From Paucidesulfovibrio longus DSM 6739 (GTDB taxonomy: Bacteria; Desulfobacterota; Desulfovibrionia; Desulfovibrionales; Desulfovibrionaceae), in contig NZ_ATVA01000014.1 in the NCBI RefSeq assembly GCF_000420485.1, forward strand, positions 186,001 through 250,000: a stretch of 64,000 nucleotides of DNA. The letters are read 5' to 3'. A program made the position numbers and the translations under genes. Of the stretch, positions 20,321 through 37,435 are shown piece after piece (the stretch's first letter is position 1; each line of letters opens with the position of its first letter). The notes beneath the pieces were generated by a model, which worked only from the letters and a program-made list of their open reading frames with translations, was not told the origin of the DNA and did no database searches.

Positions 20321-20401
20321 CGTCGTCAAGGGGGCAATCGCGTCCTTTTGCGCCGCTTTCGGCTTCCTGTTTTGTCCGACCCGGAAAACCGGGGCTAGGC
20401 T
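20321..20401 (+). promoter_or_regulatory. Virion-gene control element, copy A (diverged)
   Basis: 81 bp with the same spacing as copies B-D: a degenerate operator half (GTCAAGGGGG, where others have the palindrome), CGTCCTTTT, 26 nt, then a GACCCGG/CCGGG inverted repeat and TAGGCT (20396-20401) as -10. A TTGTCC lies 18 nt upstream of that. The predicted transcript starts about 18 nt before the holin gene. Confidence 0.75.
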
Positions 20402-20425
20402 GCGGGCAAATCAAAGGAGGTTTGC

Positions 20426-20929
20426 ATGGCGATACCGATCGTGGGCGCGTTGGCAGGGTTGCTTTCCCTCGTGGTGGACGGGGTGCGCGAGCATCTCAGA
20501 GGCAATCAGGAAATCCGGCGCGCCGTGGTGGAAAACAAGGTCAGGCTGGCCCAGTCCAGCCAGGAGTTCAACCAGGCCTGGGAAATGAAGCAACTGGAAA
20601 ACGCGGGCTGGAAGGACGACGTGCTCTTTTACGCCTGGCTCGCGTTCTTCGTCTGGTCCGGGTTCGACCCGGCGGGCGCAGGCGAGGTGCTGCGGGCCTG
20701 GGAGGCCCTGCCCGACTGGTTTCTTCAGGTCACGTTCTGGATCGTGGCGGCCGTGCTCGGCGTGAAGAAGATCGGCGACTACCTGCCCGGAACCCTGCGC
20801 GGGGTGCGCTCGGCCCTGGGGCGGGAAGCGGCCGCGGAAAACGCCGGAGCGGACCAGGGCGCAGCGCCCACGCCGGGAAGCGGCCCGTCCGCGCCGGGCC
20901 TGGTGGGAGGATCGATCCATGAGCGTTGA
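20426..20929 (+). CDS. Phage holin, GTA_holin_3TM-like
   Basis: 167 aa. Opens with an amphipathic/hydrophobic helix (IVGALAGLLSLVVDGV), then a charged region and two further membrane segments (AWLAFFVWSGF, FLQVTFWIVAAVLGV). NAGWKDDVLFYAWLAF resembles the 3TM holin family first named from gene-transfer-agent release and also common in podoviruses. It would form inner-membrane lesions for lysis. AAAGGAGG precedes the start. First gene of a three-gene block with the next frame overlapping by 11 bp. Charged C-terminal tail from about 125. Confidence 0.72.
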   Translation: MAIPIVGALAGLLSLVVDGVREHLRGNQEIRRAVVENKVRLAQSSQEFNQAWEMKQLENAGWKDDVLFYAWLAFFVWSGFDPAGAGEVLRAWEALPDWFLQVTFWIVAAVLGVKKIGDYLPGTLRGVRSALGREAAAENAGADQGAAPTPGSGPSAPGLVGGSIHER

Positions 20930-21188
20930 CGCACAGGGCTGGCGGGTGGATCGGCGCATCAATCTGGCCACGCTGCTGACTCTCGGTTCCTGCCTGCTCA
21001 TGGCCGTGACCGCCGGGGCCGGACTGGGCGCGCGGCTTCAGGTGCTGGAGGAGAAGCTCTGCACCCTGGAGCGGCGCGTGGACGAAGCGCGCGAGGCCGC
21101 CATCAAGGTCGAGCGCATCGAGGAGCGCGTGCGCGGCATTCAGGAAATGCTCGTGGACATCCGCACGGAACTGCGCAGGAGGACGTGA
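20919..21188 (+). CDS. Small membrane protein with coiled coil, 89 aa
   Basis: One membrane segment (LATLLTLGSCLLMAVTAGAG) followed by a long heptad helix (VLEEKLCTLERRVDEAREAA ... RIEERVRGIQ). The topology fits a phage i-spanin/Rz-like or a holin-associated protein. It overlaps the holin by 11 bp and the terminase small subunit by 1 bp (TGATG), so the trio is translationally coupled. Exact role unknown. Confidence 0.6.
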   Translation: MSVDAQGWRVDRRINLATLLTLGSCLLMAVTAGAGLGARLQVLEEKLCTLERRVDEAREAAIKVERIEERVRGIQEMLVDIRTELRRRT

Positions 21189-21637
21189 TGGCCGCCAGGA
21201 CGTTTTCCCGGAAACAGCGGAGCGCGTTTCTGGAATCGCTGGCCCAGCACGGCAACGTGACCCAGGCCGCGCAGCATGCGGGGCTGGGCCGCTGGAAGGT
21301 CTACGAGCTTCGCAAGCAGGATGCGGAGTTCGCCCGCGAATGGGAAGAAGCCCTGCGCGAGAGCGAGGACCGGCTGGAGGCCGAGGCCGTGCGCCGGGCC
21401 GTGGACGGAGTGGAGGAGCCGTATTTCTACCAGGGCGAGCAGCGCGGCGCTTCGCGGAAGTATTCGGATCAGCTGCTCATGTTTCTGCTCAAGTCGCGCC
21501 GACCCGATCGCTTCGGGACAGGAGCGGCCGGGGAGGAGGACGGTTCCGGGCAGACCGGTTCCGGCTCGGTGGTCTTCGAGCTGCACCTTGCGGGGGAGCC
21601 GCCCGCAACGGACGAAAGCGAAGAGCTTCCCTGCTGA
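21188..21637 (+). CDS. Terminase small subunit
   Basis: 149 aa. An HTH-like opening (FLESLAQHGNVTQAAQHAGLGRWKVYELRKQDAEFAREWEEALRE, quoted in parts) gives the known 'NVTQAA...AG' small-terminase pattern, followed by an oligomerisation helix with YSDQLLMFLLKSRRPDRFG. Small terminases recognise concatemer DNA for packaging. The end (about 115-149) is acidic and variable. Not followed directly by terL: 317 bp containing repeats and element B come first. Confidence 0.85.
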   Translation: MAARTFSRKQRSAFLESLAQHGNVTQAAQHAGLGRWKVYELRKQDAEFAREWEEALRESEDRLEAEAVRRAVDGVEEPYFYQGEQRGASRKYSDQLLMFLLKSRRPDRFGTGAAGEEDGSGQTGSGSVVFELHLAGEPPATDESEELPC

Positions 21638-21764
21638 TTTTGCAGCCGGGGCGGCTCCCGGCAGCCGCGGTCTTCCGGTCGGGCCGTTGGCCGCGCACGG
21701 GAGCAACCTGTCCGGGCGGATACCGCGTTAGCGCCCGCCCGTTTTCATGCCGTGCGCACATTCA

Positions 21765-21803
21765 CCGCGCACGTTTGCCGCGCACGTTTGCCGCGCACGT
21801 CCG
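21765..21803. repeat. Three 13-bp tandem repeats
   Basis: CCGCGCACGTTTG twice (21765-21777, 21778-21790) and a variant (21791-21803), in the 317-bp gap between the terminase genes. No gene covers it convincingly. Confidence 0.7.
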
Positions 21804-21867
21804 TCACGCACCTCCGGCGCGCATCCGCCGCATTCTGCCGGAACGTTTGCGGGCCGCTCCCTCGGCC

Positions 21868-21948
21868 CCCTGTCAACAGGGAAAAAACGTCCTTTTCCTT
21901 TCCTCTTTCCCGCCCGTTTCATCCGGCCCGAAAAACCGGGGCTAGGCT
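21868..21948 (+). promoter_or_regulatory. Virion-gene control element, copy B
   Basis: 81 bp: palindrome CCCTGTCAACAGGG (21868-21881), TCCTTTT, 26 nt pyrimidine-rich, then CCGGCCCGAAAAACCGGGGC and TAGGCT (21943-21948) as -10. The palindrome centre lies about 80 bp before the predicted start, a distance typical of activator sites. terL's ATG lies 7 nt after the -10, so its message may be leaderless. Confidence 0.8.
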
Positions 21949-21954
21949 CCGGCC

Positions 21955-23412
21955 ATGAACACGACAGCAGAACTCACAAGACGGATACGGTACGTGGCCT
22001 CGCCGACCCTGGCCCGCTTCCACGCCTCGAACGCCTTCTATCGCGGCGTCATGGGGCCTGTCGGCTCCGGCAAGTCCACGGCCATGTGCATGGAGCTGGT
22101 GCAGCGCGCCCAGCGGCAGCGGCCCGGCCCGGACGGCATTCGCCGGAGCCGCTTCGCCGTGGTCAGAAACACGTATCGGGAACTCGCGGACACCACGCTG
22201 AAGACCTGGCTGGACTGGTTTCCGGAAGATCTCTTCGGGCGCTTCGGACATTCGTCCATGACCCACGTGCTGCGTTTTGCGGACGTGCGCATGGAGGTGC
22301 TCTTCCGGTCGCTGGAGCGGCCCGGCGACCTCAAGAAGCTGCTTTCCCTGGAGCTGACCGGGGCCTGGTTCAACGAGGCCCGCGAAATGCCCAAGACCAT
22401 CGTGGACGCCATGGGCGACCGCGTGGAGCGGTATCCCGCGAAGCGGGACGGCGGCTGCGCCTGGGCCGGGGTGATCATGGACACCAACCCGCCGGACACG
22501 GACCATTGGTGGTATCGGCTCGCCGAGGAGGAGCGGCCCGGCGGATGGGAGTTCTTCAGCCAGCCCGGCGGCGTGGTGGAGCTTTCCCCGGACGGGGACG
22601 GGCCGCGCTTCGCCCCGAACCCGCAGGCCGAGAACCTCGACAACCTGCCGCCGCACTACTATGCCCGGCGCATGGCCGGGAAGCCCGCCGACCACGTCCG
22701 CGTCTACTATTGTTCCAAGTACGGCAGCGTGCAGGACGGCAAGCCCGTGTTCCCGGAGTTTCGCACCTCGGTGCACGTGGCCCGCGAGGAGCTGCGCGCC
22801 GTGGAAGGCGCTCCGTTGCAGGTGGGGCTCGACTTCGGCCTGACCCCGGCGGCGGTGTTCGGCCAGCGCCTTGCTTCCGGAGCCTGGCTCTGGCTGGGCG
22901 AACTGGTGGCCGAGGACATGGCCATGACCCGCTTCGCCGAGGAATTGCGCCGGGTTCTCGCCGAGCGCTGGCCCGGCCTGGAGGTGCTCGTGCACGGCGA
23001 CCCCGCCGGAACCCAGCGCTCCCAGGTGGACGAGCGCACCCCCTTCGACATTCTGCGGGCCTCCGGCATTGCGGCGCGTCCGGCTCCGAGCAACGATCCG
23101 CTGCTGCGGCGCGAGGCCGTGGCCCTGCCCCTGACGCGCATGGTGGACGGCAGGCCGGGCCTGCTCGTGGATCCGCAGTGCCGGGTGCTCATCAAGGGCA
23201 TGGCCGGGGCCTACCGCTATCGGCGCGTGGAGCTGGCCGGGGAGGAACGCTACAAGGACGAGCCGGAAAAGAACCGCTATTCCCACGTCTGCGACGCGGC
23301 GCAATACCTGATGATCGGGGCGGGCGAGGGCCGGGCCGTGCTCGGCTGCGAATCCGGGCCGCGACCCGCCAGGGCAGAGAACGCCTACGATCCGTTTCGG
23401 AGGCGCGCATGA
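21955..23412 (+). CDS. Terminase large subunit
   Basis: 485 aa with a complete motor and nuclease. ATPase: Walker A GPVGSGKST (34-42), a Walker B-like TGAWFNEA with Glu141, and the coupling motif DTNPPD (176-181). RNase H-like nuclease: Asp293 (GLDFGLTP), Asp349 (HGDPAG) and Asp447 (SHVCDAAQY). It packages DNA into proheads. All catalytic residues are intact, which argues against a decayed relic. No ribosome binding site is visible; it may start on a leaderless message from element B. Overlaps the next gene by 4 bp. Confidence 0.92.
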   Translation: MNTTAELTRRIRYVASPTLARFHASNAFYRGVMGPVGSGKSTAMCMELVQRAQRQRPGPDGIRRSRFAVVRNTYRELADTTLKTWLDWFPEDLFGRFGHSSMTHVLRFADVRMEVLFRSLERPGDLKKLLSLELTGAWFNEAREMPKTIVDAMGDRVERYPAKRDGGCAWAGVIMDTNPPDTDHWWYRLAEEERPGGWEFFSQPGGVVELSPDGDGPRFAPNPQAENLDNLPPHYYARRMAGKPADHVRVYYCSKYGSVQDGKPVFPEFRTSVHVAREELRAVEGAPLQVGLDFGLTPAAVFGQRLASGAWLWLGELVAEDMAMTRFAEELRRVLAERWPGLEVLVHGDPAGTQRSQVDERTPFDILRASGIAARPAPSNDPLLRREAVALPLTRMVDGRPGLLVDPQCRVLIKGMAGAYRYRRVELAGEERYKDEPEKNRYSHVCDAAQYLMIGAGEGRAVLGCESGPRPARAENAYDPFRRRA

Positions 23413-23777
23413 GCCGCTCGGGATTGCTGGTGCCGCCGCCCTGCCACGCGCACTATCCGGTTGGGGAATATCGGCACTTGCGGCTTTTCGACGATGCCGG
23501 AACCTACGGATACGCCGCGGTTGCCGAACGGGAGGACTGCCTGGAATTGCACCTGGAGGTGACGCGCTGGGGCGCGCGGGCCAGGCTCGGACTGCTGCGC
23601 GACCTGGAATGGCTCAAGGCGCAGGCCCGTTCCCTGGGCAAGGTCCGCATCACGGGGATTCGCCAGGAGCCGGACAACAGGCCGGACCCGCGCTGGGCCA
23701 AGTTCACGCGGCTGTACGGCTTCACCGGCCAGTGCGTGCTTCAGGCCGCGTTCCTGGAGCTGGACGGAGAGCGGTAA
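23409..23777 (+). CDS. Phage protein, GNAT-like, 122 aa
   Basis: The ATG overlaps terL's stop (ATGA). The alternating strands and helices (RHLRLFDDAGTYGYAAVAE, LHLEVTRWGARARLGLL, RDLEWLKAQARSLGKVRI, LYGFTGQCVLQAAFLEL) resemble the acyltransferase-like proteins found after terL in several podoviruses. The frame extends upstream only as terL's shadow. Probable internal or head-associated phage protein; role unknown. Confidence 0.6.
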   Translation: MSRSGLLVPPPCHAHYPVGEYRHLRLFDDAGTYGYAAVAEREDCLELHLEVTRWGARARLGLLRDLEWLKAQARSLGKVRITGIRQEPDNRPDPRWAKFTRLYGFTGQCVLQAAFLELDGER

Positions 23778-23826
23778 TCCTCTGGAGGACGGCGCTGCCA
23801 TGAACGGGCGCGCGCACGCGGAGCGC

Positions 23827-23856
23827 TTGACGAGGCGGCCCGGCCCTGCCTAGGGT
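23827..23856 (+). promoter_or_regulatory. Sigma-70-type promoter candidate
   Basis: TTGACG (23827-23832), 18 nt, TAGGGT (23851-23856), about 28 nt before the 23884 gene. It uses the same TAGG-type -10 as the virion elements but has a proper -35 and no palindrome. Confidence 0.6.
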
Positions 23857-23883
23857 GTGCCCACTTTTGCCGAGGAGAACTTC

Positions 23884-24540
23884 ATGCCCATGTTCCGCAG
23901 TCCCTTGATCGCCGCCCTGTTGCTGGCTTGCCTTTGCCTGATCGCAGCGGCGCCTGCCCGCCCCGCCCTGGCCGAGGACGAAATCTCCCGGGAGGAGGCC
24001 CTTGCCCTGCGCCGGGCCTACGACGAGCAGCGCACGCATGAATATCCGGATGTCGGCGTGGACAAGGCCCTGGCCGCTGCCGCGCGGGTTTTCGAGCTGG
24101 CCGACGGCGGATACGCCGTGCTGATCGGCAAGGGGGGCGTCGTGGCCCACCGCGAGCGCGAGGCGAGCCTGTTTTCCGCCGAAGCCGGGGACTATTGGTA
24201 CGTGGATGCGAGGCCTTCCGGAAACGGCGTGGTCATGCGCATTCGCCGCACTTCCGAGCCGGATCCCCGGACCTCCCTGGACGCGGAGGAGCAGAAAGCC
24301 CTGCCCGGCAGGCTCGTGGACCCCGCGACCCTGGACCCGGAAGAAACCTGGCTCTCGGAGCTGACCGATTCCGGCGCGGCCTACGCCATCTTCTTCAAGC
24401 GCATGGACTGGCTGCTGGCGCGCAACAATTACTGGCTCTACTGCCGCGCCGCCGAGGAGTACGTGAAGATGGAGAAGCTCGCGGGCACGCTCGACTCCCT
24501 CTGTCGGGACGCCGGAGACAAGCGCCCCTCGCTTCGCTAG
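23884..24540 (+). CDS. Secreted hypothetical protein, 218 aa
   Basis: Signal peptide at 1-36 (LIAALLLACLCLIAAAPARPALA). The mature part is acidic, with RVFELADGGYAVLIGKGGVV, repeated Asp/Glu and a helical C-terminus with two cysteines (LYCRAAEEYVKM, LCRDAGD). Host-like, with its own promoter, inserted between two virion blocks. Family not recognised. Confidence 0.6.
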   Translation: MPMFRSPLIAALLLACLCLIAAAPARPALAEDEISREEALALRRAYDEQRTHEYPDVGVDKALAAAARVFELADGGYAVLIGKGGVVAHREREASLFSAEAGDYWYVDARPSGNGVVMRIRRTSEPDPRTSLDAEEQKALPGRLVDPATLDPEETWLSELTDSGAAYAIFFKRMDWLLARNNYWLYCRAAEEYVKMEKLAGTLDSLCRDAGDKRPSLR

Positions 24541-24623
24541 AGAAAGGCGGAGCAGGAGTCGGCGCGGTCTTCTCTGCCGCCGCGCAAGGTTCTGCGCCGG
24601 AAGGATGAAAGCTGCGGGCCGAT

Positions 24624-26180: not shown

Positions 26181-26300
26181 ACGCTTTTCTCCCCCAGGGG
26201 CCGGTTCGCGTCAAGGCGTAACCTGCGCGCGATGCGCGGGGACGCGATTTGCGGCAGACAAGGAGGGCATGATCCTGTATCCTGGAATGGGAGGAGCCTG

Positions 26301-27548: not shown

Positions 27549-27574
27549 TTCTGCACGACAATCACGGAGGCCGC

Positions 27575-27961
27575 ATGGGATTCGCCGTTGGACATGATCT
27601 TCGCCGCAGACCGGGCTGGACCCGTTTCGCCGCGACCCTGGCCGTACTGCTGCCGGTGCTGCTGCTCTGCGCCTGCGTCGCCAAGCAGAGCCACCCGCTC
27701 TTGCAGTACGAGCCGGCGAAAATGACCGATGAAGGGCTGGTGCGCTACTACTACGATCTCGGCGAGGCCATCGACGCCTGCGAACGCTCCGGGCAGGGCG
27801 ACGCCACTGTTTCGGTGGGCGGCGGAGTGGGCACGGGCGGCTGGTCCGGAGTCGGGGTCAGCGTTGGGCAGCCGGTGAGCAAGGGCTGCAAAAGCGACCC
27901 GCTGCGCCAGCGGCGCGTGGACACCGCCATCGAGATGCGAAAACGCGGCATTCAGCACTAG
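27575..27961 (+). CDS. Lipoprotein, 128 aa
   Basis: Signal with lipobox LLCAC (VLLPVLLLCACVAKQSH). The mature part holds an acidic helix, then a glycine-rich stretch (GGGVGTGGWSGVGVSVGQ) and a basic helix. GGAGG precedes the start. Co-oriented with the HD-GYP gene (26 bp gap) and possibly co-transcribed. Family unknown. Confidence 0.6.
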   Translation: MGFAVGHDLRRRPGWTRFAATLAVLLPVLLLCACVAKQSHPLLQYEPAKMTDEGLVRYYYDLGEAIDACERSGQGDATVSVGGGVGTGGWSGVGVSVGQPVSKGCKSDPLRQRRVDTAIEMRKRGIQH

Positions 27962-29333: not shown

Positions 29334-29414
29334 CCCTGTCAACAGGGAAAATCCGTCCTTTTCCTTTCCTTCTTCCAGCCATTTTCATCCGCCCCGCAAA
29401 ACCGGGCCTAGCAT
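29334..29414 (+). promoter_or_regulatory. Virion-gene control element, copy C
   Basis: 81 bp: CCCTGTCAACAGGG (29334-29347), TCCTTTT, 26 nt, then CCGCCCCGCAAAACCGGGCC and TAGCAT (29409-29414) as -10. Leader of about 45 nt before the small gene at 29465, which has AAGGAGG. Confidence 0.8.
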
Positions 29415-29464
29415 GGGCCTCGTGCCGGAATGACCCGGCGCGAAAGACCTCAAGGAGGAAGATC

Positions 29465-29770
29465 ATGGGAGGAGCGGCATCCGTGGTGGCCACGGTGGCG
29501 GGGTTGGTTTCCGGGGCCGGGTCGGCGCGTTCCGGGGGCGGGACGAGCGGTCCGAGCGCGGCGGACCTGCGCGCGCAGCAGCTGGAGGAGCAGCGCAAGC
29601 GAAAGGCCGAGGAAAGGCGCAAGGCGAGGGAGCGCAAGGACGAGGCCAGGGAGCTTGCCGACGCGCGGCAAAAGCGCGCGAGCGTGGGCTCGCTGCTCTC
29701 CGGAGGCGCGGTCCTGCTTGGAGAGCCGGACGTGAGCCGCACCGGGCTCAAAGGGAAGTTGGGCGAATGA
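29465..29770 (+). CDS. Small phage protein, 101 aa
   Basis: Glycine/alanine-rich opening (GGAASVVATVAGLVSGAG) followed by a basic coiled helix (LEEQRKRKAEERRKARERKD) and a short end. It overlaps the portal gene by 4 bp. Small proteins of this shape precede the portal in related podoviruses; role unknown. Confidence 0.6.
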   Translation: MGGAASVVATVAGLVSGAGSARSGGGTSGPSAADLRAQQLEEQRKRKAEERRKARERKDEARELADARQKRASVGSLLSGGAVLLGEPDVSRTGLKGKLGE

Positions 29771-31341
29771 GGCCGCGCGACGCACGCATCGAACTGGAAC
29801 TTGCGGAGCGGGTCCGCGCCCGGCTGGAAGCCATGCGCGCTGGCCGCTCCCAGTGGGAACCGGTCTGGCGCGATCTCAGCGACTACATACTGCCGCGCAA
29901 GAATTCCTTCGGCAGCGGCGCGGGCCGGGGCTCCGCCGGGGACGAGCTGATTTTCGACTCGACCCCGACCCATGCCCTGGAGCAGCTCGCTTCGGGCCTG
30001 GGGGGGCTTCTGACCAATCCGGCCCTGCCCTGGTTCGGCATCCGCGTGCGCGACAGGCGCACGGCGGACCGCAGGGAGGTGCGCGAATTCCTGCAGGAGA
30101 CGCGCGAGCGCATGGTCCGGCTTTTCAACACGGAATCCACCGGCTTTCAGGCCCATGTGCACGAGCTGTATCTGGACATCGTGCTCCTGGGCACGGCCGT
30201 CATGTACGTGGAGGCGGACCCGGACACCGTGGTGCGCTTTTCCACCCGGCCCCTGGGCGAGGTCTTCGTCGCGGAGAACGTGCGCGGCGTGGTGGATACG
30301 GTTTTCCGGCAATACGAGCTGACCGCGCGGCAGGCGGTGCAGGAATGGGGCGAGGACTGCTCGGAGGCGGTGCGCGTCCTGGCGGCGGACAGGCCCGAAA
30401 ACAAGGTGGAGATTCTGCACGCGGTCTTTCCCCGCGCCGACCGCGACCCCGCGGGCTTCACCTGCGCGGACTTTCCCTGGGCCAGCGTGCAGCTGGAAAC
30501 CGCGACGGGCCGGGTTCTGGAGGAAAGCGGCTACCTGGAAATGCCCTACATGGTGCCCCGCTGGTCCAAGGCCGCCGGGGAGACGTACGGCCGCGGGCCG
30601 GGGCTGACCTCCCTGTCGGACGTGCGCGTGCTCAGCGCCATGTCGCGCACAGCGCTCATGGCCGCCGAGAAAATGAGCGATCCGCCGCTGATGGTGCCGG
30701 ACGACGGATTTCTCGGTCCGGTGCACACCGGGCCGGGCGGGCTGTCCTACTACCGCGCCGGAAGCCGCGACCGCATCGAGGCCCTGCCCGTGGCCGTGGA
30801 TCTGAAGGCCGCCGAGGAAATGATGCGCACGCGCAGGGAGTCGGTGCGTCGGATTTTCCTCACGGACCAGCTCTCCCCGGAAGGGCCGGGCCTGACCGCC
30901 ACCGAGGCGGTCATCCGCCAGAGCGAAAAGATGCGCCTGCTCGGCCCCGTGCTGGGCCGGATGCAGACCGAATTCCTCAGCCCGTTGATCCGCAGGGTCT
31001 TCAACATCCTGCTTCGCGCCGGGGAGCTGCCGCCCCTGCCGCCGGGCCTGCGGCCCCGCGACCTGGACGTGGAATACCTCTCGCCCGTGGCCCGCGCCCA
31101 AAAGCAATACGAGGCCCAGTCCCTGCTTCAGGTGGTCGAATATCTCGGCCCGTTCCTGCGGGAGGGCGACCCCTACGGAGTCATGGACAACTTCGAGACG
31201 GACCGCATCGCGCGGCATGCCGCGGAAATGTTCGGCACGCCCGGCGACTACCTGCGTCCGGAAGTCGAGGTCCGCGCGCGGCGCAGCGCGGGCAGCGGCC
31301 AGGAGAGCGACGAGCCGCGGGAACAAGGGGCAAGGCCATGA
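29767..31341 (+). CDS. Head-to-tail connector / portal protein
   Basis: 524 aa, full length for the T7-type (Head-tail connecting) portal family. Signature regions: RARLEAMRAGRSQWEPVWRD with LSDYILPRKN, SGLGGLLTNPALPWFGI, TAVMYVEADP, RGPGLTSLSDVRVLS, and MGTPGDYLRPEVEVR near the end. Twelve copies form the channel through which DNA enters and leaves the head. Well-conserved throughout. Overlaps the upstream and downstream genes by 4 bp. Confidence 0.92.
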   Translation: MRPRDARIELELAERVRARLEAMRAGRSQWEPVWRDLSDYILPRKNSFGSGAGRGSAGDELIFDSTPTHALEQLASGLGGLLTNPALPWFGIRVRDRRTADRREVREFLQETRERMVRLFNTESTGFQAHVHELYLDIVLLGTAVMYVEADPDTVVRFSTRPLGEVFVAENVRGVVDTVFRQYELTARQAVQEWGEDCSEAVRVLAADRPENKVEILHAVFPRADRDPAGFTCADFPWASVQLETATGRVLEESGYLEMPYMVPRWSKAAGETYGRGPGLTSLSDVRVLSAMSRTALMAAEKMSDPPLMVPDDGFLGPVHTGPGGLSYYRAGSRDRIEALPVAVDLKAAEEMMRTRRESVRRIFLTDQLSPEGPGLTATEAVIRQSEKMRLLGPVLGRMQTEFLSPLIRRVFNILLRAGELPPLPPGLRPRDLDVEYLSPVARAQKQYEAQSLLQVVEYLGPFLREGDPYGVMDNFETDRIARHAAEMFGTPGDYLRPEVEVRARRSAGSGQESDEPREQGARP

Positions 31342-31622
31342 GCGGAGCCGGACAAAACGGCGGCGGTTCTCCCCGGTTCGGTTCCGGACCGGTGGCGCAG
31401 GCCGAGCTGGAGCGGGCCTATGCGCGGGTTTTTGACGGTCCGGAAGGCGAAGCCGTGTTCGCGGATCTGATGCGGCAGGGGCGGCTGGAAGCACCCATCT
31501 TCTCGCCGGACGCGCTGGAACTGGCCCACGCCGAAGGGCGCCGGAGCCTGGCCCTGCACGTCCGGCGCATGGCCGAGCGGGGCCGTGCGGGCGGCGCTAT
31601 TGCAGGGCGTGCAGGGAGTTGA
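31338..31622 (+). CDS. Bbp19-like phage protein, 94 aa
   Basis: ATG overlaps the portal stop. The core LERAYARVFDGPEGEAVFADLMRQGRL is the recognisable Bbp19-type motif found next to portals in podoviruses; the end is variable. Structural or assembly role suspected. Its last 26 bp overlap a small reverse-strand frame at 31597. Confidence 0.7.
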   Translation: MSGAGQNGGGSPRFGSGPVAQAELERAYARVFDGPEGEAVFADLMRQGRLEAPIFSPDALELAHAEGRRSLALHVRRMAERGRAGGAIAGRAGS

Positions 31623-31713
31623 GGTGCGTGACCCAGGTGCTCAGGGCCAGGCTGGCGGCGTACGCGGCCACGCCGAGCAGGGTGACGCGAAAAAAGGACC
31701 GAAGGCGGCGCAT
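31597..31713 (-). CDS. Possible 38-aa membrane peptide
   Basis: Begins MRRLRSFFRVTLLGV and continues as a hydrophobic helix (AAYAASLALSTWVTHL) to a stop, with AGGAGA about 8 nt before the ATG. Positive n-region and one membrane segment. It overlaps the end of the Bbp19-like gene on the other strand. Too short to be sure. Confidence 0.4.
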   Translation of the reverse strand: MRRLRSFFRVTLLGVAAYAASLALSTWVTHLNSLHALQ

Positions 31714-31832
31714 GGCGGTCTCTCCTGTTTCCGGTTCCCGGAACGTGTTTCCGGTCCGAAAGGGTGAGCAAGGGCTATGCCAGCGGAAACATTGGACATG
31801 TTAGAAAAACTCTAGAGAAAATGGAGGAAATC

Positions 31833-32672
31833 ATGGATCAGGTGAATCAGGAGCAAGGCTGGTGGGTTGAACTGCCTGCGGAATGGAGCGCGCCTTTGCG
31901 CGGGGAGGACGGCGTGGAGCGGCAGGTGCCCCTGCGGGAGCATCCTGCCCTGCGCAAGTACGCCAGCAAGGACGAGGCCGTGAAGGTCTTGGTCCATGCG
32001 CAGCGCATGCTGGGCCGCCGGCCCGAGGGGTACGTGCGCGTGCCGGGCGAGGCCGCCGCTCCCGAGGAGCAGGCCGAATTCCGCGCGGCCCTGGGGCTGC
32101 CCGAGGCTCCGGACGGGTACGGCCTGCCCGATGTGGAGCTGCCCGACGGGTTCGAGCTGCGCGAGGAGCTGCGCAGCGCCTACCTGGCCAAGGCGCATGA
32201 GCTGGGCCTGACCCCGACGCAGGTCAGCGGGCTGTTCGAGTGGTTCGTGCCGCTGAACGTCTCGGCGGCGCAGGAGCTGAGCCTGGACCAGGAGAAGCGG
32301 CGGGGCGGAGAGCTGGAAAGCCTGCGCAGCGTGCATCGCGGCGAGACCCAGGCCGTGCTGGAGGCGGCGCGCCAGGCGGCGCTGGCCCTGGGCGGCGAGG
32401 AGCTGCTCCGCGTCTTTGAGGAAACCGGAGCCGCGGACCGGGCCGTGGTCGTGAACGCGCTATCGCGGCTTGCCCCGGTCATGCTGGAAGGCCGGTTTCG
32501 CTTCCGCGACGCGGGCGCGACCCAGGGCCTGACCCTGGCCAAGCTCAAGGAAATGATGCGCGATCCGCGCTATCACGATCCGTTGCAGCGCGACCCCGCG
32601 TTCGTGGAACAGGTGGCCAAGGGCTTTGAGGCGCTCTACCCCGGCAAATACGAGCCGGGCTCGCGGAACTGA
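31833..32672 (+). CDS. Scaffolding / capsid-assembly protein
   Basis: 279 aa. Starts MDQVNQEQGWWVELPAEW; I chose 31833 because GGAGG lies just upstream (an in-frame ATG at 31764 also exists). The region YGLPDVELPDGFELREEL and the long acidic helix with QVSGLFEWF are typical of T7-type scaffold proteins, which template the head and leave before DNA enters. The end (KLKEMMRDPRYHDPLQRDPAFVEQV) is a clear helical capsid-binding candidate. The gene normally immediately precedes the major capsid gene, but none follows here. Confidence 0.75.
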   Translation: MDQVNQEQGWWVELPAEWSAPLRGEDGVERQVPLREHPALRKYASKDEAVKVLVHAQRMLGRRPEGYVRVPGEAAAPEEQAEFRAALGLPEAPDGYGLPDVELPDGFELREELRSAYLAKAHELGLTPTQVSGLFEWFVPLNVSAAQELSLDQEKRRGGELESLRSVHRGETQAVLEAARQAALALGGEELLRVFEETGAADRAVVVNALSRLAPVMLEGRFRFRDAGATQGLTLAKLKEMMRDPRYHDPLQRDPAFVEQVAKGFEALYPGKYEPGSRN

Positions 32673-32732
32673 CCGGGCGGGCAAGGAAGGGCGGTTCCGG
32701 CATCGGCCGGGCCGCCCGAAGGCGCGGGCGCG

Positions 32733-32990
32733 TCAGTTGTCGCGCAGGACGCCCATGAAGAGCAGGGCGGCGGCGCGTTTCTGCGGCAGGGTGATGTTGC
32801 CTTCGGATTCGGGCTGGGGCTGGTCGGGCCGAATCGTCTCCAGTTCGGTCGAAGGCGGCAAGGGAGCAATGGTCAGTCTGTGCCCGGCATCGGCCACCAT
32901 CGGGGTCCGGTTGTTGAAGTCGTTGGAAACCAGGGCGGCGAGAACGGTGAAAACCATGGCCAGGGCCATATATATGATCGTCTTGTGCAT
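32733..32990 (-). CDS. Small membrane protein, 85 aa
   Basis: One membrane segment (TIIYMALAMVFTVLAALV), then a Pro/Glu-rich periplasmic tail. GAGG precedes the ATG at 32990. Host-like, on the opposite strand to the virion genes. Occupies the position where a capsid gene would be expected. Confidence 0.55.
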   Translation of the reverse strand: MHKTIIYMALAMVFTVLAALVSNDFNNRTPMVADAGHRLTIAPLPPSTELETIRPDQPQPESEGNITLPQKRAAALLFMGVLRDN

Positions 32991-33482
32991 GGGAACCTCG
33001 GTTCCCGCGAGCGGCGGAGAGAAGGAAACAGGTGCGAAATGCAGCGGCTCCGCTTTCACGGGTGTCTCTCGGTAAAAGAATCATGGGTAAAGCGCAAGGC
33101 AAAATGTCCTAGGTGCCTGAATCCGGTTGCAGGAATGCATCTTTTCAGGGGCTGGAATGCGGATTTCGGGAGTGAAATCTGCACAAAACCCGCGTTGGCG
33201 GGCAGCCATGCATTCGGTTCCAATCGCAGTAAAAATGATATGATCATTATACTGAATTAAAATGGAATAATGCAACTTAAGCACAAATTAATGAGAACAG
33301 CAATGTCCACGAATGCCGGGTCGCAGACAGCGATTCCCGGTTCAGGGACACGGGATCGGGACATGTTTGCCTCGGATATTTCTATAACGTGCCTTGGAAT
33401 GGAATCCGTCGCAGACGCGGCCAAAAAAGCGCCGCAGCGCGGCAGGAGGCCGCCGGAGCGCGAGGTCGGGGCGAGGCGTCTT
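32991..33482. other. Intergenic region with AT-rich patch, no gene seen
   Basis: Nothing here codes convincingly. DNA at about 33225-33310 is clearly AT-rich compared with the surroundings. It may hold promoters for the leftward small gene or be the scar of a lost capsid gene. Confidence 0.4.
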
Positions 33483-34127
33483 TCAGCCGTACAGAAGCAG
33501 CAGGCGGGGCAGCCTGCCCTTGCTCAGCCGGGCGGCCAGGCTCACGAGGTCGCAGGCGATGCGCCCGCGCAGGGGCGCGGCGGAAGGGTCGAAGCCGTCC
33601 CGGCCTCGCGCGCGGAAATACTCCCGCGTGAACCAGTAGGCCAGACCTTCCTGATAGGAGAGCAGGAGCGGGAAGAGCAGGGCGTCCAGCAGGGCATGGA
33701 TCGCTTCGCGCGGGGCGGGCCTGTTCAGGTAGGCCAGGGCGAGGGCGCGGGCCAGTTCCTGCTCGGCGCGCGGACCGTAGCGGATCACGATTTCGCGGTC
33801 GGGCAGGATGCTCGGCAGGAGCGGAAAGAAATAGAGCAGGCCGATGCAAAGGGCCGTGAACAGGGCCACGCCGGGGTTGAACCATCCCGCCCAGAGAAAC
33901 AGGACCAGGGCCAGCGCCAGAGCGCCGACCGCGGAATAGAGCGCGGCGCGGCGCAGCTTGGATCCGCCGAGGCGGATTCCCGGATCCGGGTCCGCTTCCA
34001 GCAGCTCCTCGGAGAGCGGGGGCGCGAAGCGGAGCATGTCCCGCTTCAGGCCCAGGGAGGGCAGGCCGAGATCCTTGCGGTACCAGCCGAGCACGTCCCG
34101 GACCAGGGCTTTTTCAGAGTCGTTCAT
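33483..34127 (-). CDS. Membrane protein, 214 aa
   Basis: Two adjacent membrane segments (AVGALALALVLFLWAGWF and VALFTALCIGLLYFFPLL) flanked by basic soluble regions; the C-terminal half is helical and Arg/Leu-rich. Start ATG at 34127; the in-frame extension to 34199 is not convincing. Family unknown. Lies between scaffold and tail genes on the opposite strand. Confidence 0.55.
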   Translation of the reverse strand: MNDSEKALVRDVLGWYRKDLGLPSLGLKRDMLRFAPPLSEELLEADPDPGIRLGGSKLRRAALYSAVGALALALVLFLWAGWFNPGVALFTALCIGLLYFFPLLPSILPDREIVIRYGPRAEQELARALALAYLNRPAPREAIHALLDALLFPLLLSYQEGLAYWFTREYFRARGRDGFDPSAAPLRGRIACDLVSLAARLSKGRLPRLLLLYG

Positions 34128-34221
34128 GGGCCTACCTGCGGGCGGAGTGCGCGCGGGGCGTCCTGCCGAAGTCGGCGAACCGGCGCGAACAATGCGCAAA
34201 CCTTACGAAAGGGGGAATCAA

Positions 34222-34806
34222 ATGGCAACGAGCGTTATTGAAATCTGCAACAACGCCCTCCAGGATCTGGGCGAGGATCCTATTTCCTCGCTGGTGGAAG
34301 GGAACAAGGCCGCCCGGCTCTGCAACCAGCGCTGGCCCTCCGTGCGGGACGCGGTGCTCCGGGCGCACCCGTGGAACTGCGCCATGTCCCAGGCGGAATT
34401 GGCCGCGAACCTGGGCGCGCCGCTCTGGAAATGGCGCTGCCGCTACGAGCTGCCCGCAGACTTTCTGCGCATCGTGGGCGTGGTGGACAGCCGCCAGAAC
34501 GAGGTCGCCCGCTGGGAAATACAGGGCCGTCACATCCTCTGCGACGAGGACGCGCCCATCTACATCGCCTACGTGCGGCGCGAGACCGATCCGCAACGCT
34601 TCGACGCGCTGCTCTCCGAGGCCTTTTCCGCGCGGCTGGCCGCTGTCCTGGCCTATCCGCTCACGGGGTCCACGAGCCTGGCCAGGGAATACTGGGACGT
34701 CTACAACGAAAAGGTGCTGGAGGCGCGGGGCGTGGACGCGCGCGAGGGCGTGGCCGAGTCCGTGGCCCCCAACGCCTGGCTCACGGCCAAGCTCGGCAGG
34801 GGCTGA
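34222..34806 (+). CDS. Tail tubular protein A (T7 gp11-like)
   Basis: 194 aa, the same length as T7 gp11 (196). Recognised by IEICNNALQDLGEDPISSL, AARLCNQRWPSVRDAVLRAHPWNCA, the central KWRCRYELPADFLRIVGV, and the C-terminal helices with LAREYWDVYNEKVLEAR. It forms the ring joining portal and nozzle. GGGGGAA precedes the ATG. No copy of the control element lies before it; it stands alone between leftward cellular genes. Confidence 0.9.
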   Translation: MATSVIEICNNALQDLGEDPISSLVEGNKAARLCNQRWPSVRDAVLRAHPWNCAMSQAELAANLGAPLWKWRCRYELPADFLRIVGVVDSRQNEVARWEIQGRHILCDEDAPIYIAYVRRETDPQRFDALLSEAFSARLAAVLAYPLTGSTSLAREYWDVYNEKVLEARGVDAREGVAESVAPNAWLTAKLGRG

Positions 34807-34834
34807 TTCCGGGGCCGGGCGCGGCGGCTGCGGC

Positions 34835-35050
34835 CTAGCGAGGGAGGTAGTGGGGCGGGAGCGGATCCTCGCCCTCCTCCCCCTCGGGCAGGGCCGTGCG
34901 CAGGGCGCGATAGCGTCCGGCCAGAATTTCCATCTGCCTGCGCAGTTCGGTGATTTCCATCTGCTGCTGCGCGACGACGCGGTTCAGTTCCTCGACCTCG
35001 CGGTCGCGCAGCGCCTGAAGCTCTTCCAACCGCACCAATCTGCTTTCCAT
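34835..35050 (-). CDS. slyX: SlyX family protein
   Basis: 71 aa coiled coil (LEELQALRDREVEELNRVVAQQ, quoted in part; MEITELRRQMEIL) ending with the family-like PPHYLPR. SlyX proteins are small cytosolic coiled coils of unclear function. GGAGAGCGGG precedes the ATG at 35050. Leads the block of leftward cellular genes reaching back to 37172. Confidence 0.75.
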   Translation of the reverse strand: MESRLVRLEELQALRDREVEELNRVVAQQQMEITELRRQMEILAGRYRALRTALPEGEEGEDPLPPHYLPR

Positions 35051-35067
35051 CCCGCTCTCCTTGTTCG

Positions 35068-35721
35068 TCACGCGATTCTCCGCAAAACCTCGGCCAGACA
35101 GCGGCAGGGCGCGCCGTCCGCGTCGGCCAGGGGCAGGGGCGCGCAGATGAAGGTGAAGCCCGAATCGGGCAGGGCCTCCAGGTTGCGCAGGTTCTCCACG
35201 ATCAGCGCGCCCGCGCGGAACAGGGTCCGGTGCACGGGTAGGTCCGTGTCGGTGCAGCGTTCCGGGGAGGGCGTGTCCAGGCCCAGGCCCGTCACGCCTG
35301 TCCCGGCCAGGAGTTCCGCGGCGGCTGGGGTCAGTTCCGGATGCTCCGTGAAATAATCCGGCGCTCCCCAGTGTTCCTCCCATCCTGTCTGGAGCAGCAG
35401 CCAGTCGCAGCGCGCGGGCAGGTGGGGCCGCAGGTGCTCCGGGCCGATGCGCCCGCCGGACTCGCGGCAGGCCGCGCGCAGGTCGAGCCTGCGTCCCTGG
35501 CCGATCCAGGTGCCCGCGGGCAGGCTGTCCAGGGTCGCGCCGCCGGGCACAAGGTGCGCGGGTGCGTCGCAGTGCGTGCCCATGTGCGAGGTCAGCGTGA
35601 AGCGGGCCTCCAGGAAGCCTTTGGTCTCCAGCGTGGCGGCGTTGTCGAAGGCGGGCTCGGGCGTGCCCGGAAAGACGGGCATCCCCGGAACAAGCGGGTG
35701 GCTGAGGTCGATGACGAGCAA
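35068..35721 (-). CDS. Cyclase / kynurenine-formamidase-like hydrolase
   Basis: 217 aa. The metal-binding motif HMGTHCDAPAH (47-57) and the surrounding LSHPLVPGMPVFPGTPEP belong to the cyclase family; a later His occurs in PVHRTLF. Substrate unknown. Start is TTG at 35721, supported by GGAGG 6 nt upstream; no ATG lies in frame before the conserved domain. Confidence 0.82.
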   Translation of the reverse strand: MLVIDLSHPLVPGMPVFPGTPEPAFDNAATLETKGFLEARFTLTSHMGTHCDAPAHLVPGGATLDSLPAGTWIGQGRRLDLRAACRESGGRIGPEHLRPHLPARCDWLLLQTGWEEHWGAPDYFTEHPELTPAAAELLAGTGVTGLGLDTPSPERCTDTDLPVHRTLFRAGALIVENLRNLEALPDSGFTFICAPLPLADADGAPCRCLAEVLRRIA

Positions 35722-35733
35722 GAGCGTCCTCCT

Positions 35734-36651
35734 TTAGAGTTGGGCCAGGGCGCAGCCCCGGTCCCGAAGCAGTTGGAGCAGGCCCTGGTCGCCGACCACG
35801 TGGCCGGCGCCCACGATGACGAAGTGGATTTCCCCGGATTCGAGATAGTCCAGGATTTTCGAGGCCATGTTCCGGTTGCGCTCGAAATAGAGCTTTTCGT
35901 TCAGCGGACGGAAGACGGCGTTGAAGAGCGGGCTGCCGAAAAGAATCTGCTCCAGCTCCGGGACGTCGCCGCGCTTCCAGGCCTCGGCCAGCCTGCGGGC
36001 CAGCTTGTCCATGGTCCGCATCTGGAGCAGGGAGAAGCGCAGGTAGGCGTCCTGGTTCATTTCCTCCAGCCCCGCGAGCATCCGGAACTGCTCCTCCACG
36101 CCTTCCAGCTCGCGCACGGGCATGCCGCGTTCGTGCGCGCGTTCCAGAAAATGCATGTCGATGCCCAGCTCGGAGCGAAAACCGAGCCGGACCATCTGCT
36201 CGGACTGCATGGCCGTGAGCGCGTACCAGGGCCGGAAGCCCTCATAGCGCGTCCAGTCCTGGCCCGCGCGCTCGAAGGCGGCCTTGGCCTCGTCCGAAAG
36301 CTCGTCGCCGAGGGTCTTGCCCGGCGGGCAGGCGGCCAGCTCGCGCATCATGCGGCCCTGCTCGGGGGTGATCCGGGTGACGTCGGCCTCCACGGCCAGG
36401 ATCGCGCTCTTGCCGAAGGCTTCGTCAAAGGCCGGGGCCAGCGGATACATGCTCTCGTCCGCGAAATGCATGGAGCCCGCGAGGTAGGCGATGCGGCCGT
36501 TGCGTTCCACGCGCCAGAGAAAGCTCGCGGCCTTGGCCGGGGCCGCCGGTCCCAGGGTCAGGGAGCAGCAGGCCAGGGCCGCGGCGGCCAGGGCCGGAAT
36601 GCGGCGCGCAGCGGAGCGCAGGAAGCGGGAAAACTGTCTCAGCAAAGCCAT
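35734..36651 (-). CDS. TraB/GumN family protein
   Basis: 305 aa with a signal peptide (ALAAAALACCSLTLGPAAPAKA). The family pattern is clear: FLWRVERNGRIAYLAGSMHFADESMYPL at the start and a GxGHxxG-type motif (IVGAGHVVGDQGLLQLL) at the end. These are proposed metal-dependent proteases (TIKI-like). Located 5 bp after the DUF985 gene on the same strand: one transcription unit. Confidence 0.85.
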   Translation of the reverse strand: MALLRQFSRFLRSAARRIPALAAAALACCSLTLGPAAPAKAASFLWRVERNGRIAYLAGSMHFADESMYPLAPAFDEAFGKSAILAVEADVTRITPEQGRMMRELAACPPGKTLGDELSDEAKAAFERAGQDWTRYEGFRPWYALTAMQSEQMVRLGFRSELGIDMHFLERAHERGMPVRELEGVEEQFRMLAGLEEMNQDAYLRFSLLQMRTMDKLARRLAEAWKRGDVPELEQILFGSPLFNAVFRPLNEKLYFERNRNMASKILDYLESGEIHFVIVGAGHVVGDQGLLQLLRDRGCALAQL

Positions 36652-36656
36652 GGTCC

Positions 36657-37172
36657 TCACTTCGTGGTCAGCCGCGTGATGAGCGCGGCGTGTTCGGGCC
36701 ATTCCCGCAGGAGCGCTTCGCGCCGGCCGTGCTCATAGTCCGCGTATTCGAAGCCCGGGGCAACGGTGCAGCCGAGCAGGGCGAATTCCGCGCCCGGCTC
36801 CAGCAGCGCGCCCTGCCAGACCCCGCGCGGCACCACCACCTGGGGCCGCTGGCCAGCGCGCAGGTCCGGGCCGATGACGAGTTCGCGCGCGCCCGGCTCC
36901 TGGTTCCGCTCCGGGCCGAGCTGGAGCATCCGCACTGGTCCGCCCGCGTAGAAATGAAAGATTTCGTCGCTTTTCAGTCGATGCAGGGCCGAGAACGTGC
37001 CCGGCGTGAGCAGGTAGTAGATGGCCGTGCCGAAGCTGCGCGGGCCGGAGTAGCGCGCGGGCAGCGCGGAAAGCGGCGCGCCCTCGTCCGCGCGGTACGT
37101 CTCGGCGAAAAAGCCGCCTTCCTCCGGGTGGGGCGTCAGCTGGAGCAGTTCGATGATTTCCTGTGCGGTCAT
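36657..37172 (-). CDS. Cupin, DUF985 family
   Basis: 171 aa. The family pattern QLTPHPEEGGFFAETYRADE, RSFGTAIYYLLTPGTFSALHRLKSDEIFHFYAG and PRGVWQGALL is complete. Members are sugar-nucleotide-epimerase-like cupins of unknown substrate. First gene of the leftward cellular operon; diverges from element D, whose palindrome lies about 180 bp away. Confidence 0.85.
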   Translation of the reverse strand: MTAQEIIELLQLTPHPEEGGFFAETYRADEGAPLSALPARYSGPRSFGTAIYYLLTPGTFSALHRLKSDEIFHFYAGGPVRMLQLGPERNQEPGARELVIGPDLRAGQRPQVVVPRGVWQGALLEPGAEFALLGCTVAPGFEYADYEHGRREALLREWPEHAALITRLTTK

Positions 37173-37354
37173 GGCGGATCGTCTCCCGGTCGTGGTCGTT
37201 TCCGAAGAGGGCGCGGCTGGATTGACGACGCCGGGGTGCAGTCCCGGCGGGCCGTGGAACGCAAGCTGCCCGCTCTTCCTGCGCTGCGCAGACAGGCACG
37301 ATAGCAAAGCGCGCCCGCCTGGGGAAGCCCGCAAGGAATGCTCCGGGCCGCAAA

Positions 37355-37435
37355 CCCTGTCAACAGGGGAAAAACATCCTTTTGCCTTCCCCTTTGCTTC
37401 CCTTTTCATCCGGCCCGAAAAACCGGGGCTAGGCT
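37355..37435 (+). promoter_or_regulatory. Virion-gene control element, copy D
   Basis: 81 bp: CCCTGTCAACAGGG (37355-37368), TCCTTTT, 26 nt, CCGGCCCGAAAAACCGGGGC and TAGGCT (37430-37435). Compared with copy B, 72 of 81 bases match and the right-hand 30 are identical. Leader of about 20 nt with AAGGAGG before the GTG start. Confidence 0.85.

What the first reader, a model, noticed from the sequence alone, without database searches (positions are those of the whole stretch)
20321..37435. Identical 81-bp control element in front of four virion blocks
Copies at 20321-20401, 21868-21948, 29334-29414 and 37355-37435 have exactly the same length and internal spacing. Each has the palindrome CCCTGTCAACAGGG (degenerate in the first), TCCTTTT, 26 nt of pyrimidine-rich DNA, an inverted repeat (CCGGCCC/CCGGGGC type) and a TAGGCT-like -10. 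B and D match at 72 of 81 bases. The -35 is poor and the palindrome sits near -80, which fits an activator-dependent promoter. A shared regulatory element at scattered loci means a regulon. It could instead mark block edges from past recombination.
Basis: seen in the sequence. Interest (0 to 1): 0.87.

Follow-up and report, generated by a model that had tools for sequence, protein, structure and literature searches.

The report
Dispersed phage-particle regulon with phage switch
A sulfate-reducing bacterium carries the genes of a virus-like, DNA-packaging particle scattered around its chromosome, nearly every piece behind a copy of what looks like one ancient viral switch, and the likely protein that flips the switch sits close by, which points to a new kind of gene-transfer particle.

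Summary
The four elements are real but not identical: B/C/D agree at 63-72 of 81 bases, A at 52-57; unrelated 81-mers reach 38. Model R1 finds eight genome-wide: five before virion genes (the capsid gene lies outside the window), three before RHS or effector-like genes. In five genomes 61 of 62 sites read had a virion or effector-like gene downstream; one was unreadable. The virion is podovirus-like, its capsid and tail genes track RpoB (Mantel r 0.93), Ka/Ks 0.12-0.23. Not the palindrome but helically phased direct repeats between CCTGTCAA and a -10 are conserved; repeat words differ by lineage but change together at dispersed loci. Two viral contigs have one similar promoter before the late operon, beside a small winged-HTH gene. 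Its homologue lies in this window (9978-10199), opposite an S24-type repressor; it co-occurs with the portal (54 of 56 genomes, cut-offs chosen afterwards) and its recognition helix co-varies with the repeats. Best reading: a domesticated phage repressor/late-activator switch drives a dispersed, gene-transfer-agent-like regulon with polymorphic effectors. Binding, particles and transfer are untested.

The parts
20321..20401 (+). Element A, late-type promoter before the phrog_2524 / spanin-like / TerS block
   Evidence: (R1 63.2 bits at 20324-20401)
21868..21948 (+). Element B, promoter of the large terminase gene
   Evidence: (72.7 bits)
29334..29414 (+). Element C, promoter of the portal block
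   Evidence: (67.0 bits)
37355..37435 (+). Element D, promoter of the tail tubular B block
   Evidence: (72.2 bits)
8586..9335 (-). LexA/CI-type repressor (Peptidase_S24, weak HTH_3), divergent from the activator candidate
   Evidence: Pfam S24 1.1e-6, HTH_3 0.0066 below cut-off; homologue within 1.5 kb of the HTH in 27 of 30 loci, and 51% identical in viral contig L190
9336..9571 (.). Intergenic control region with inverted repeat CTTTTGTC-N11-GACAAAAG and a TTGACA; putative repressor operator
   Evidence: 12 intergenic regions looked at; this exact repeat is in G000 only, G217 has a different one; function inferred
9572..9970 (+). DUF5675 protein; in viral contig L191 its homologue follows the late promoter directly
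   Evidence: Pfam 1.1e-31; 46% to L191 6970-7389
9978..10199 (+). 73-aa winged-HTH protein, candidate activator of the regulon
20426..20929 (+). phrog_2524 protein (unknown function) of the first virion block
   Evidence: E 1.7e-7; homologue behind an element in G250 (L145)
20919..21188 (+). Rz-like spanin (weak)
   Evidence: E 9e-4
21188..21637 (+). Small terminase
   Evidence: phrog_4044 2.4e-36
21955..23412 (+). Large terminase
   Evidence: phrog_2 3.1e-22
23409..23777 (+). Unknown gene in the terminase block, with homologues in relatives
   Evidence: L030, L038, L045
29465..29770 (+). Small protein before the portal, with homologues in relatives
29767..31341 (+). Portal (podoviral head-tail connector)
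   Evidence: PF12236 1.2e-148
31392..31622 (+). phrog_14772 protein, in the same place in compact viruses
31821..32672 (+). Scaffold-like capsid assembly protein
   Evidence: phrog_3742, weak T7 capsid assembly hit
34222..34806 (+). Tail tubular protein A; no element of its own in this genome
   Evidence: phrog_394 3.6e-54
37462..39567 (+). Tail tubular protein B
   Evidence: phrog_376 6.7e-175
39689..40198 (+). Internal virion protein (weak)
   Evidence: phrog_418 3.3e-4
40232..41674 (+). Tail fibre-like protein
41686..42093 (+). Unknown gene after the fibre
   Evidence: no family

Best explanation
The element is a phage-type late promoter, copied to or kept at nearly each piece of a domesticated podovirus-like virion gene set that is now scattered over the chromosome. 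Proposed mechanism: (1) An S24-type repressor (8586-9335) represses the divergent DUF5675-HTH operon (inferred). (2) When the repressor is removed, perhaps by RecA-stimulated self-cleavage (inferred from recalled motifs), the 73-aa winged-HTH protein (9978-10199) accumulates. (3) It polymerises head-to-tail along the helically phased direct repeats, like BldC, and recruits RNA polymerase to a promoter with a good -10 and poor -35 (inferred from repeat phasing, fold and co-variation). (4) This turns on, in trans, terminase, portal, capsid, tail and RHS/peptidoglycan-hydrolase-like effector genes, giving particles that act as a gene transfer agent (inferred). Supported by computation: a specific multi-locus regulon, mostly vertical inheritance, purifying selection, concerted promoter change, helical phasing, and co-occurrence and co-variation of the HTH with the promoters.
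For: Regulon: G000 8 of 8 R1 elements before virion (5) or effector-like (3) genes; in five genomes 62 sites read of 75 hits: 33 virion, 28 effector-like, 1 unreadable. Controls without a close portal orthologue (17 genomes): 7 R1 hits, all E>=0.03, and 6 R2 hits, best 0.004. Reverse test, element upstream by model at E<=0.1: TerL 11 of 11, tubB or its operon 30 of 30 (several only over the -10 half), MCP 22 of 30 (7 more by eye), portal 19 of 30 (11 more by lenient pattern and eye); an unrelated TerL in G152 (L236) has none. Concerted change: alignment similarity of the middle 50 bp 0.620 for different genes of one group against 0.436 for the same gene of different groups, shuffled 0.399 (68 elements). 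Phasing: lags 10-11 and 20-22 bp stand out in all five groups, 31-32 in three (41 elements). Origin: viral contigs L190 and L191 have one promoter of this build before the late operon, each with the HTH gene ending a few bases upstream. HTH in 54 of 56 genomes with the orthologous portal and 2 of 232 others at a cut of about 2e-24. Promoter distance follows HTH distance after removing RpoB distance: partial r 0.50, recognition-helix region 0.59, 0 of 2000 permutations (25 genomes). HTH model pLDDT 84.6; weak Foldseek neighbours RacA, MerR type, RdfS, BldC, Xis. Vertical inheritance. Ka/Ks 0.12-0.23.
Against: No binding, expression, particle or transfer data. tubA in the window has no element. 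The models were built partly from sequences they then match; 11 portal and 7 MCP elements were accepted by eye. The g37a/g37b split was made by looking at promoters, so the label permutation is partly circular (the partial Mantel uses no labels). In one search other lags also pass (23-26, 29, 33 in g25; 25-26 in g1; 29, 34 in g4), and lag 11 in g25 is marginal. HTH and portal cut-offs were chosen after seeing the lists: at E<=1e-20 five of 232 other genomes have the HTH, at E<=1e-3 thirty-five do; phylogeny confounds co-occurrence. Of all tree splits only 12 of 23 (MCP) and 14 of 23 (tubB) agree with RpoB. R1 hits are not exclusive to one helix type: G250 and G222 have 13 and 10. The viral promoters were found with a lenient pattern that gave 17 rows in 7 loci, most of them chance; L194 and the four compact prophages showed none at the late operon. 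No Foldseek match reaches E 0.001 (best 0.007). HTH_17 is below Pfam's cut-off (24.4 against 27). G229 and G248 keep the portal without a full HTH match. Promoter homogenisation by gene conversion is not excluded.
Confidence: 0.75

Rival explanations
1. The elements are homogenised by recombination (gene conversion or block-edge exchange), and similarity within a genome reflects copying rather than a shared regulator.
For: Same-genome elements are among the most alike (0.676); several RHS-linked elements lie near contig ends (L134, L135, L159, L160), as repeated genes would.
Against: Copies are not identical; similarity sits in phased words and the two ends while intervening bases differ (listing, by eye). 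Elements in the window are all 5' and co-oriented with genes, with none at 3' ends. The HTH recognition helix co-varies with the words.
Confidence: 0.12
2. The virion genes are decaying prophage remnants and the promoters are relics.
For: Virion genes are separated by other genes; one survey called 53 Desulfovibrio elements complete and 75 degenerate (PMC6006170, passages seen).
Against: Ka/Ks 0.12-0.23; MCP and tubB in 30 of 30 genomes tested, two or three of them broken; congruence with RpoB. G165 (81% complete), which lacks the portal, also lacks element and HTH.
Confidence: 0.06
3. The particle is mainly a toxin- or hydrolase-delivery device and not a gene transfer agent; the DNA packaging genes serve head assembly only.
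For: 28 of 62 elements read precede RHS, Tlde1, CHAP-like or related proteins with variable C-termini.
Against: A packaging set (TerS, TerL, portal, scaffold, capsid) is present, and TerL, portal and capsid are under purifying selection.
Confidence: 0.2
4. The promoters are controlled by another protein; the HTH is an excisionase relic or a repressor.
For: PHROGs calls one matching family excisionase and transcriptional regulator (17 of 39 members match phrog_66).
Against: Co-occurrence with portal orthologues, location beside the viral late promoter, and helix-word co-variation.
Confidence: 0.2

Closest known systems
RcGTA and GafA (Rhodobacter capsulatus)
   Same: GTA genes at several loci, up together in a hyperproducer; a dedicated HTH activator binds the GTA promoter (PMC6363796, passages seen; ectopic loci also in a PMC6854486 passage).
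   Different: RcGTA has one core structural cluster and siphovirus-like parts (the latter recalled). Here terminase, portal, capsid and tail pieces each have their own promoter copy; the activator candidate is a 73-aa winged HTH, unlike GafA.
CcGTA and GafYZ/IHF (Caulobacter)
   Same: Degenerate -35, upstream activator site, palindrome between -35 and -10, about 18 accessory promoters bound by GafY (PMC11150451, passages seen).
   Different: One main cluster; other regulators; no phased repeat array described in the passages seen.
FpGTA (Faecalibacterium)
   Same: Podovirus-like GTA with two operons about 125 kb apart (PMC12946183, section 9 read).
   Different: Two operons, no shared element described in that section; here 8 R1 hits in G000 and 6 to 28 in the 14 g25 genomes that have a portal.
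Dd1 GTA of Desulfovibrio desulfuricans
   Same: A GTA reported by experiment in the former genus Desulfovibrio (Rapp and Wall 1987, not held; cited in passages).
   Different: Described as an island (Ddes_0703 and following, PMC5701242 passage) with TerS next to TerL (PMC6854486 passage). Homology to the present genes could not be tested.
BldC family (Streptomyces) and RdfS
   Same: Small MerR-like winged HTH, among weak Foldseek neighbours; head-to-tail oligomers, BldC on direct repeats, with one DNA turn between subunits at smeA-ssfA (PMC5859096, PMC11963761, passages seen).
   Different: Weak structural match; no binding shown here; BldC's whiI repeats are 9 bp, these 10-11; phage origin differs.
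HTVC010P-type Pelagibacter podoviruses
   Same: Closest named portal relatives, about 42-44% identity in the 15 of 231 records listed.
   Different: Phage genomes of 34-35 kb, not chromosomal genes.

Membership tests
Gene transfer agent (viriform) | Phage-derived structural and packaging genes kept in the host genome | tested here: met
Gene transfer agent (viriform) | Vertical inheritance and purifying selection | tested here: met
   Mantel 0.93; supported splits shared 9 of 12 (MCP) and 12 of 15 (tubB), all splits 12 of 23 and 14 of 23; 26 of 30 genomes used; Ka/Ks 0.12-0.23
Gene transfer agent (viriform) | No self-propagation: genes cannot be packaged together, no replication or integration genes | tested here: inconclusive
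   Virion genes lie on several contigs or tens to hundreds of kb apart in most single-contig genomes looked at; no integrase or replication gene was met among the block genes scanned, but the genome was not searched for one
Gene transfer agent (viriform) | Particles contain random host DNA | not testable with these tools
   needs particles
Gene transfer agent (viriform) | Transfers genes to recipients | not testable with these tools
   needs a transfer assay
RcGTA-like agents | RcGTA-type head-tail cluster (features recalled) | tested here: not met
   podoviral portal PF12236 and tail tubular proteins, dispersed genes
Dd1 GTA | Homology to the Ddes_0703-0720 island | not testable with these tools
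Defective prophage | Contiguous block with decaying genes | tested here: not met
BldC-like regulators | Small MerR-like winged HTH | tested here: inconclusive
   AlphaFold model pLDDT 84.6 shows a winged HTH; RacA, RdfS, Xis and BldC among Foldseek neighbours, but E 0.007-0.6, none below 0.001
BldC-like regulators | Head-to-tail binding to direct repeats | not testable with these tools
   repeat phasing fits; binding not tested

The most novel reading that the evidence does not exclude
A whole podoviral virion has been dismantled into a chromosome-wide host regulon in several genera of Desulfovibrionaceae. The phage's repressor/late-activator switch still runs it: one small, filament-forming winged-HTH protein reads the same phased promoter at nearly every dispersed locus, and its recognition helix and its target sites evolve together. 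The regulon has recruited a polymorphic set of RHS and peptidoglycan-hydrolase effectors, so the particle both carries DNA and delivers or releases antibacterial proteins.
Probability: 0.35. Interest if true: 0.95.

Novelty: new variant of a known kind. Interest (0 to 1): 0.88.

Why it matters
Gene transfer agents are hard to recognise because they look like broken prophages. Here a short promoter signature names particle genes and their accessory proteins across a chromosome, and gives a testable activator and repressor. It would extend podovirus-like gene transfer agents to common sulfate reducers, offer a natural system for regulator and promoter co-evolution over dozens of genomes, and link such particles to RHS-type effectors. 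In the held library no paper has both 'gene transfer agent' and the whole word 'Rhs'; no paper on dispersed GTA genes in this family was noticed in the listings, which show only part of some hit lists and no subscription journals.

Tried and rejected
Palindrome as the regulatory unit: rejected, mainly its left half is conserved. ORF 33270-34241 as the major capsid: rejected, the capsid gene is at G000 C14:265318-266151 minus and several of its phage homologues are annotated major capsid protein. A first capsid reference was translated out of frame and corrected. The first Ka/Ks run used wrong strands for some loci and is replaced. R1 and R2 found no element in the compact viral contigs or compact prophages (one weak R1 hit in L298), which first suggested the element arose in the host; the lenient search changed that view for L190 and L191. 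AlphaFold of the capsid gave pLDDT 44 and was not used. Rows dropped: G218, G005, G251 and G227 from the trees (broken or partial matches); L236 and L237 from the TerL count (other terminases; L236 kept as a negative control); 13 of 75 element hits in five genomes were not read. Portal loci L046-L075 are the best 30 matches and include no g25 genome. In the 21 named portal loci an element was seen upstream in 16 (by eye); four have under 330 bases upstream, and in L038 it lies before the capsid gene instead. Four genomes with a 36% identical portal (g34) gave 3 R1 hits at E 0.02-0.1, so no element is claimed there. In some g37 genomes (G232, G234) the models find nothing or one weak hit though an element is visible by eye. 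The effector reference set was built partly from the same sites, so that class is partly self-defined; RHS and Tlde1 were confirmed by Pfam, CHAP is below its cut-off.


Full report
CHECK OF THE OBSERVATION. Pairwise identity over 81 bases is 72 (B-D), 69 (B-C), 63 (C-D), 57 (A-D), 56 (A-B) and 52 (A-C); the best other 81-mer in the window matches B or D at 37-38 positions. So they are homologous, not identical. The palindrome is exact in B, C and D. The window is a piece of a 3.70-Mb, 19-contig genome; named relatives of its portal are mostly Desulfovibrionaceae, the nearest a Desulfovibrio MAG at 85%.

WHAT LIES DOWNSTREAM. The blocks encode a podovirus-like virion: small terminase, large terminase, portal (PF12236, 1.2e-148), scaffold-like protein, tail tubular proteins A and B, a fibre and a weak internal virion protein. 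Between them lie ordinary genes, for example a SpoIIE phosphatase, a TraB protein and a cyclase. A sequence-only model of the element (R1, from A-E and eight relatives) finds eight copies in the genome: A-D; E on contig 18; and one each on contigs 4, 2 and 14. R2 finds nine; the ninth is not among the listed rows. The contig-14 copy outside the window stands before the major capsid gene, identified by phage homologues annotated as major capsid protein. The other three precede two RHS proteins and one effector-like protein without a Pfam family.

THE REGULON IN RELATIVES. R1 was run on 62 genomes and R2, a model of a longer class, on 59. Seventeen genomes without a close portal orthologue served as controls: 7 R1 hits, none below E 0.03, and 6 R2 hits, best 0.004. 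I read 62 of the 75 hits in five genomes: 33 lie before virion genes, 28 before effector-like genes, and one ran into a contig end (G000 8 of 8, G250 13 of 16, G166 20 of 28, G156 9 of 10, G159 12 of 13). The effectors are RHS proteins with variable C-termini and, in genus g25, proteins with a shared N-terminal motif and different ends, two with a Tlde1 domain and one with a CHAP match below its cut-off. In the reverse direction an element precedes the large terminase in 11 of 11 loci, tubB or its operon in 30 of 30, the capsid gene in 22 of 30 by model plus 7 by eye, and the portal in 19 of 30 by model plus 11 by a lenient pattern and eye; some model matches are weak (three of the TerL ones are at E 0.002-0.06) and some cover only the -10 half. 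In g25, where genes are split further, scaffold and tubA have their own elements. Exception: tubA in the window has none.

INHERITANCE. A portal match was found in 190 of 288 family genomes. In 56 of them, in five genus groups (g1, g4, g25, g27, g37), it is close (about 59-84% identity), with one match in 48 of the 56; others have a second, often prophage or broken, match. Capsid and tubB were found in 30 of 30 genomes tested, the large terminase of this type in 11 of 30. Capsid and tubB distances follow RpoB (Mantel r 0.93 each, 0 of 2000 permutations; supported splits shared 9 of 12 and 12 of 15, all splits 12 of 23 and 14 of 23; 26 of 30 genomes). Ka/Ks between this genome and two congeners is 0.12-0.23 for portal, capsid, terminase and tubB (some Ks values are near saturation). 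In single-contig genomes portal, capsid and tubB mostly lie tens to hundreds of kb apart (G228, for one, has capsid and portal adjacent).

ANATOMY OF THE ELEMENT. In relatives the ends persist (CCTGTCAA, and an A-rich stretch with CCGGGG and a TATACT/TATGCT/TAGGCT -10) while the middle changes: GTCC-type words in g1 and g25, GCCC in one part of g37, ATACC/ACATTC in another, GCTGC in two g4 genomes. In all five groups the middle has internal repeats at lags of 10-11 and 20-22 bp (41 elements; other lags also pass in some groups). The words change together at unlinked loci: alignment similarity of the middle 50 bp is 0.620 between different genes of one group (297 pairs) but 0.436 between the same gene of different groups (499 pairs); shuffled sequence gives 0.399; 68 elements in all. 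The g37 split was made from promoters, so the label permutation (0 of 500) is partly circular. This is what a shared, evolving trans-acting protein would leave; gene conversion is the alternative.

ORIGIN AND THE LIKELY ACTIVATOR. Seven IMG/VR contigs carry portal relatives. L190, L191 and L194 have the portal-to-tubB genes in compact viral order. A lenient search found in L190 (6930) and L191 (6841) one promoter of the same build before the late operon: TTGTCAA, about 10-bp ACCGGATTTA-like repeats, an A-run, and GGGGTTACGCT. The pattern gave 17 rows in 7 loci, so this rests on position, on agreement between the two contigs and on the repeats. The gene that ends a few bases before this promoter encodes a small HTH protein (66 aa in L191), and the first gene after it a DUF5675 protein. 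Homologues of both lie in this window, at 9978-10199 and 9572-9970, divergent from an S24 repressor at 8586-9335. An S24 homologue lies within 1.5 kb of the HTH gene in 27 of 30 fetched loci, DUF5675 in 16 of 30; L190 has an S24 protein 51% identical. The repressor shows AAG, S-M-P-T-like and V-K-R motifs as in self-cleaving repressors (motifs recalled). In three compact prophages (G240 C43, G237 C8, G230 C49) and on two further contigs whose layout was not checked (G277, G269) an HTH relative lies upstream of the portal in the same orientation.

TESTS OF THE ACTIVATOR. HTH relatives occur in 90 of 288 genomes at E<=1e-3. With a cut of about 2e-24, chosen after seeing the list, 56 genomes have it and 56 have the close portal; 54 have both, two only the portal, two only the HTH, 230 neither. 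At 1e-20 five genomes outside the 56 have it, at 1e-3 thirty-five. Phylogeny confounds this count. G165 (81% complete) lacks portal, element and HTH together. Across 25 genomes (47 capsid and tubB elements) promoter distance follows HTH distance after RpoB is removed (partial r 0.50), more for the 15-residue recognition-helix region (0.59) than for the rest (0.38), each 0 of 2000 permutations. Three genomes not used in R1 fit: G007, G228 and G168 have g1-like helices and 4, 10 and 7 R1 hits, while G005 and G006, with a different helix, have 0 and 1; but G250 and G222, with the g37a helix, also have 13 and 10 R1 hits, so this is only suggestive. The model (pLDDT 84.6) is a winged HTH with helix 21-30. 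Its Foldseek neighbours, none below E 0.001, include RacA, RdfS, Xis and BldC. BldC and RdfS oligomerise head-to-tail, BldC on direct repeats (PMC5859096, PMC11963761, passages seen), which fits the repeat array.

KNOWN SYSTEMS. Multi-locus control of a gene transfer agent by a dedicated activator is known for RcGTA and CcGTA, and a two-operon podovirus-like agent for Faecalibacterium. Desulfovibrio Dd1 is known experimentally, but its relation to these genes could not be tested. What differs here is the degree of dispersal, a promoter copy at nearly every piece, a phage-derived repressor and small winged-HTH activator candidate, and polymorphic effectors in the same regulon. Membership in 'gene transfer agent' stays unproven because DNA content and transfer were not testable.

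Noticed in passing
window 18304-20210: Three neighbouring + strand ORFs (18304-18606, 18694-19149, 19320-20210) that by eye look like diverged tandem copies of one small protein (first one weak DUF4440), directly before element A.
   Followed up: partly
window 34222-34806: Tail tubular A is a core virion gene of the window without an element; two minus-strand ORFs predicted by my gene finder separate it from the portal block.
   Followed up: yes
G237 C8, G230 C49, G240 C43, G164 C4 (L298-L301): Genomes with the dispersed set also carry compact prophages with related portal and tail genes, three of them with a related capsid.
   Followed up: partly
G166, L155-L166: Proteins with a shared N-terminal motif (GTKIGAGHKPQPYG-like) and different hydrolase-like C-termini, each behind an element; they resemble polymorphic effectors.
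   Followed up: partly
19 genomes of g37 and g4 tested: A large terminase of this type is found in 0 of 19, though weak 32-38% matches beside its neighbour gene in L030 and L038 hint at a strongly diverged one.
   Followed up: no
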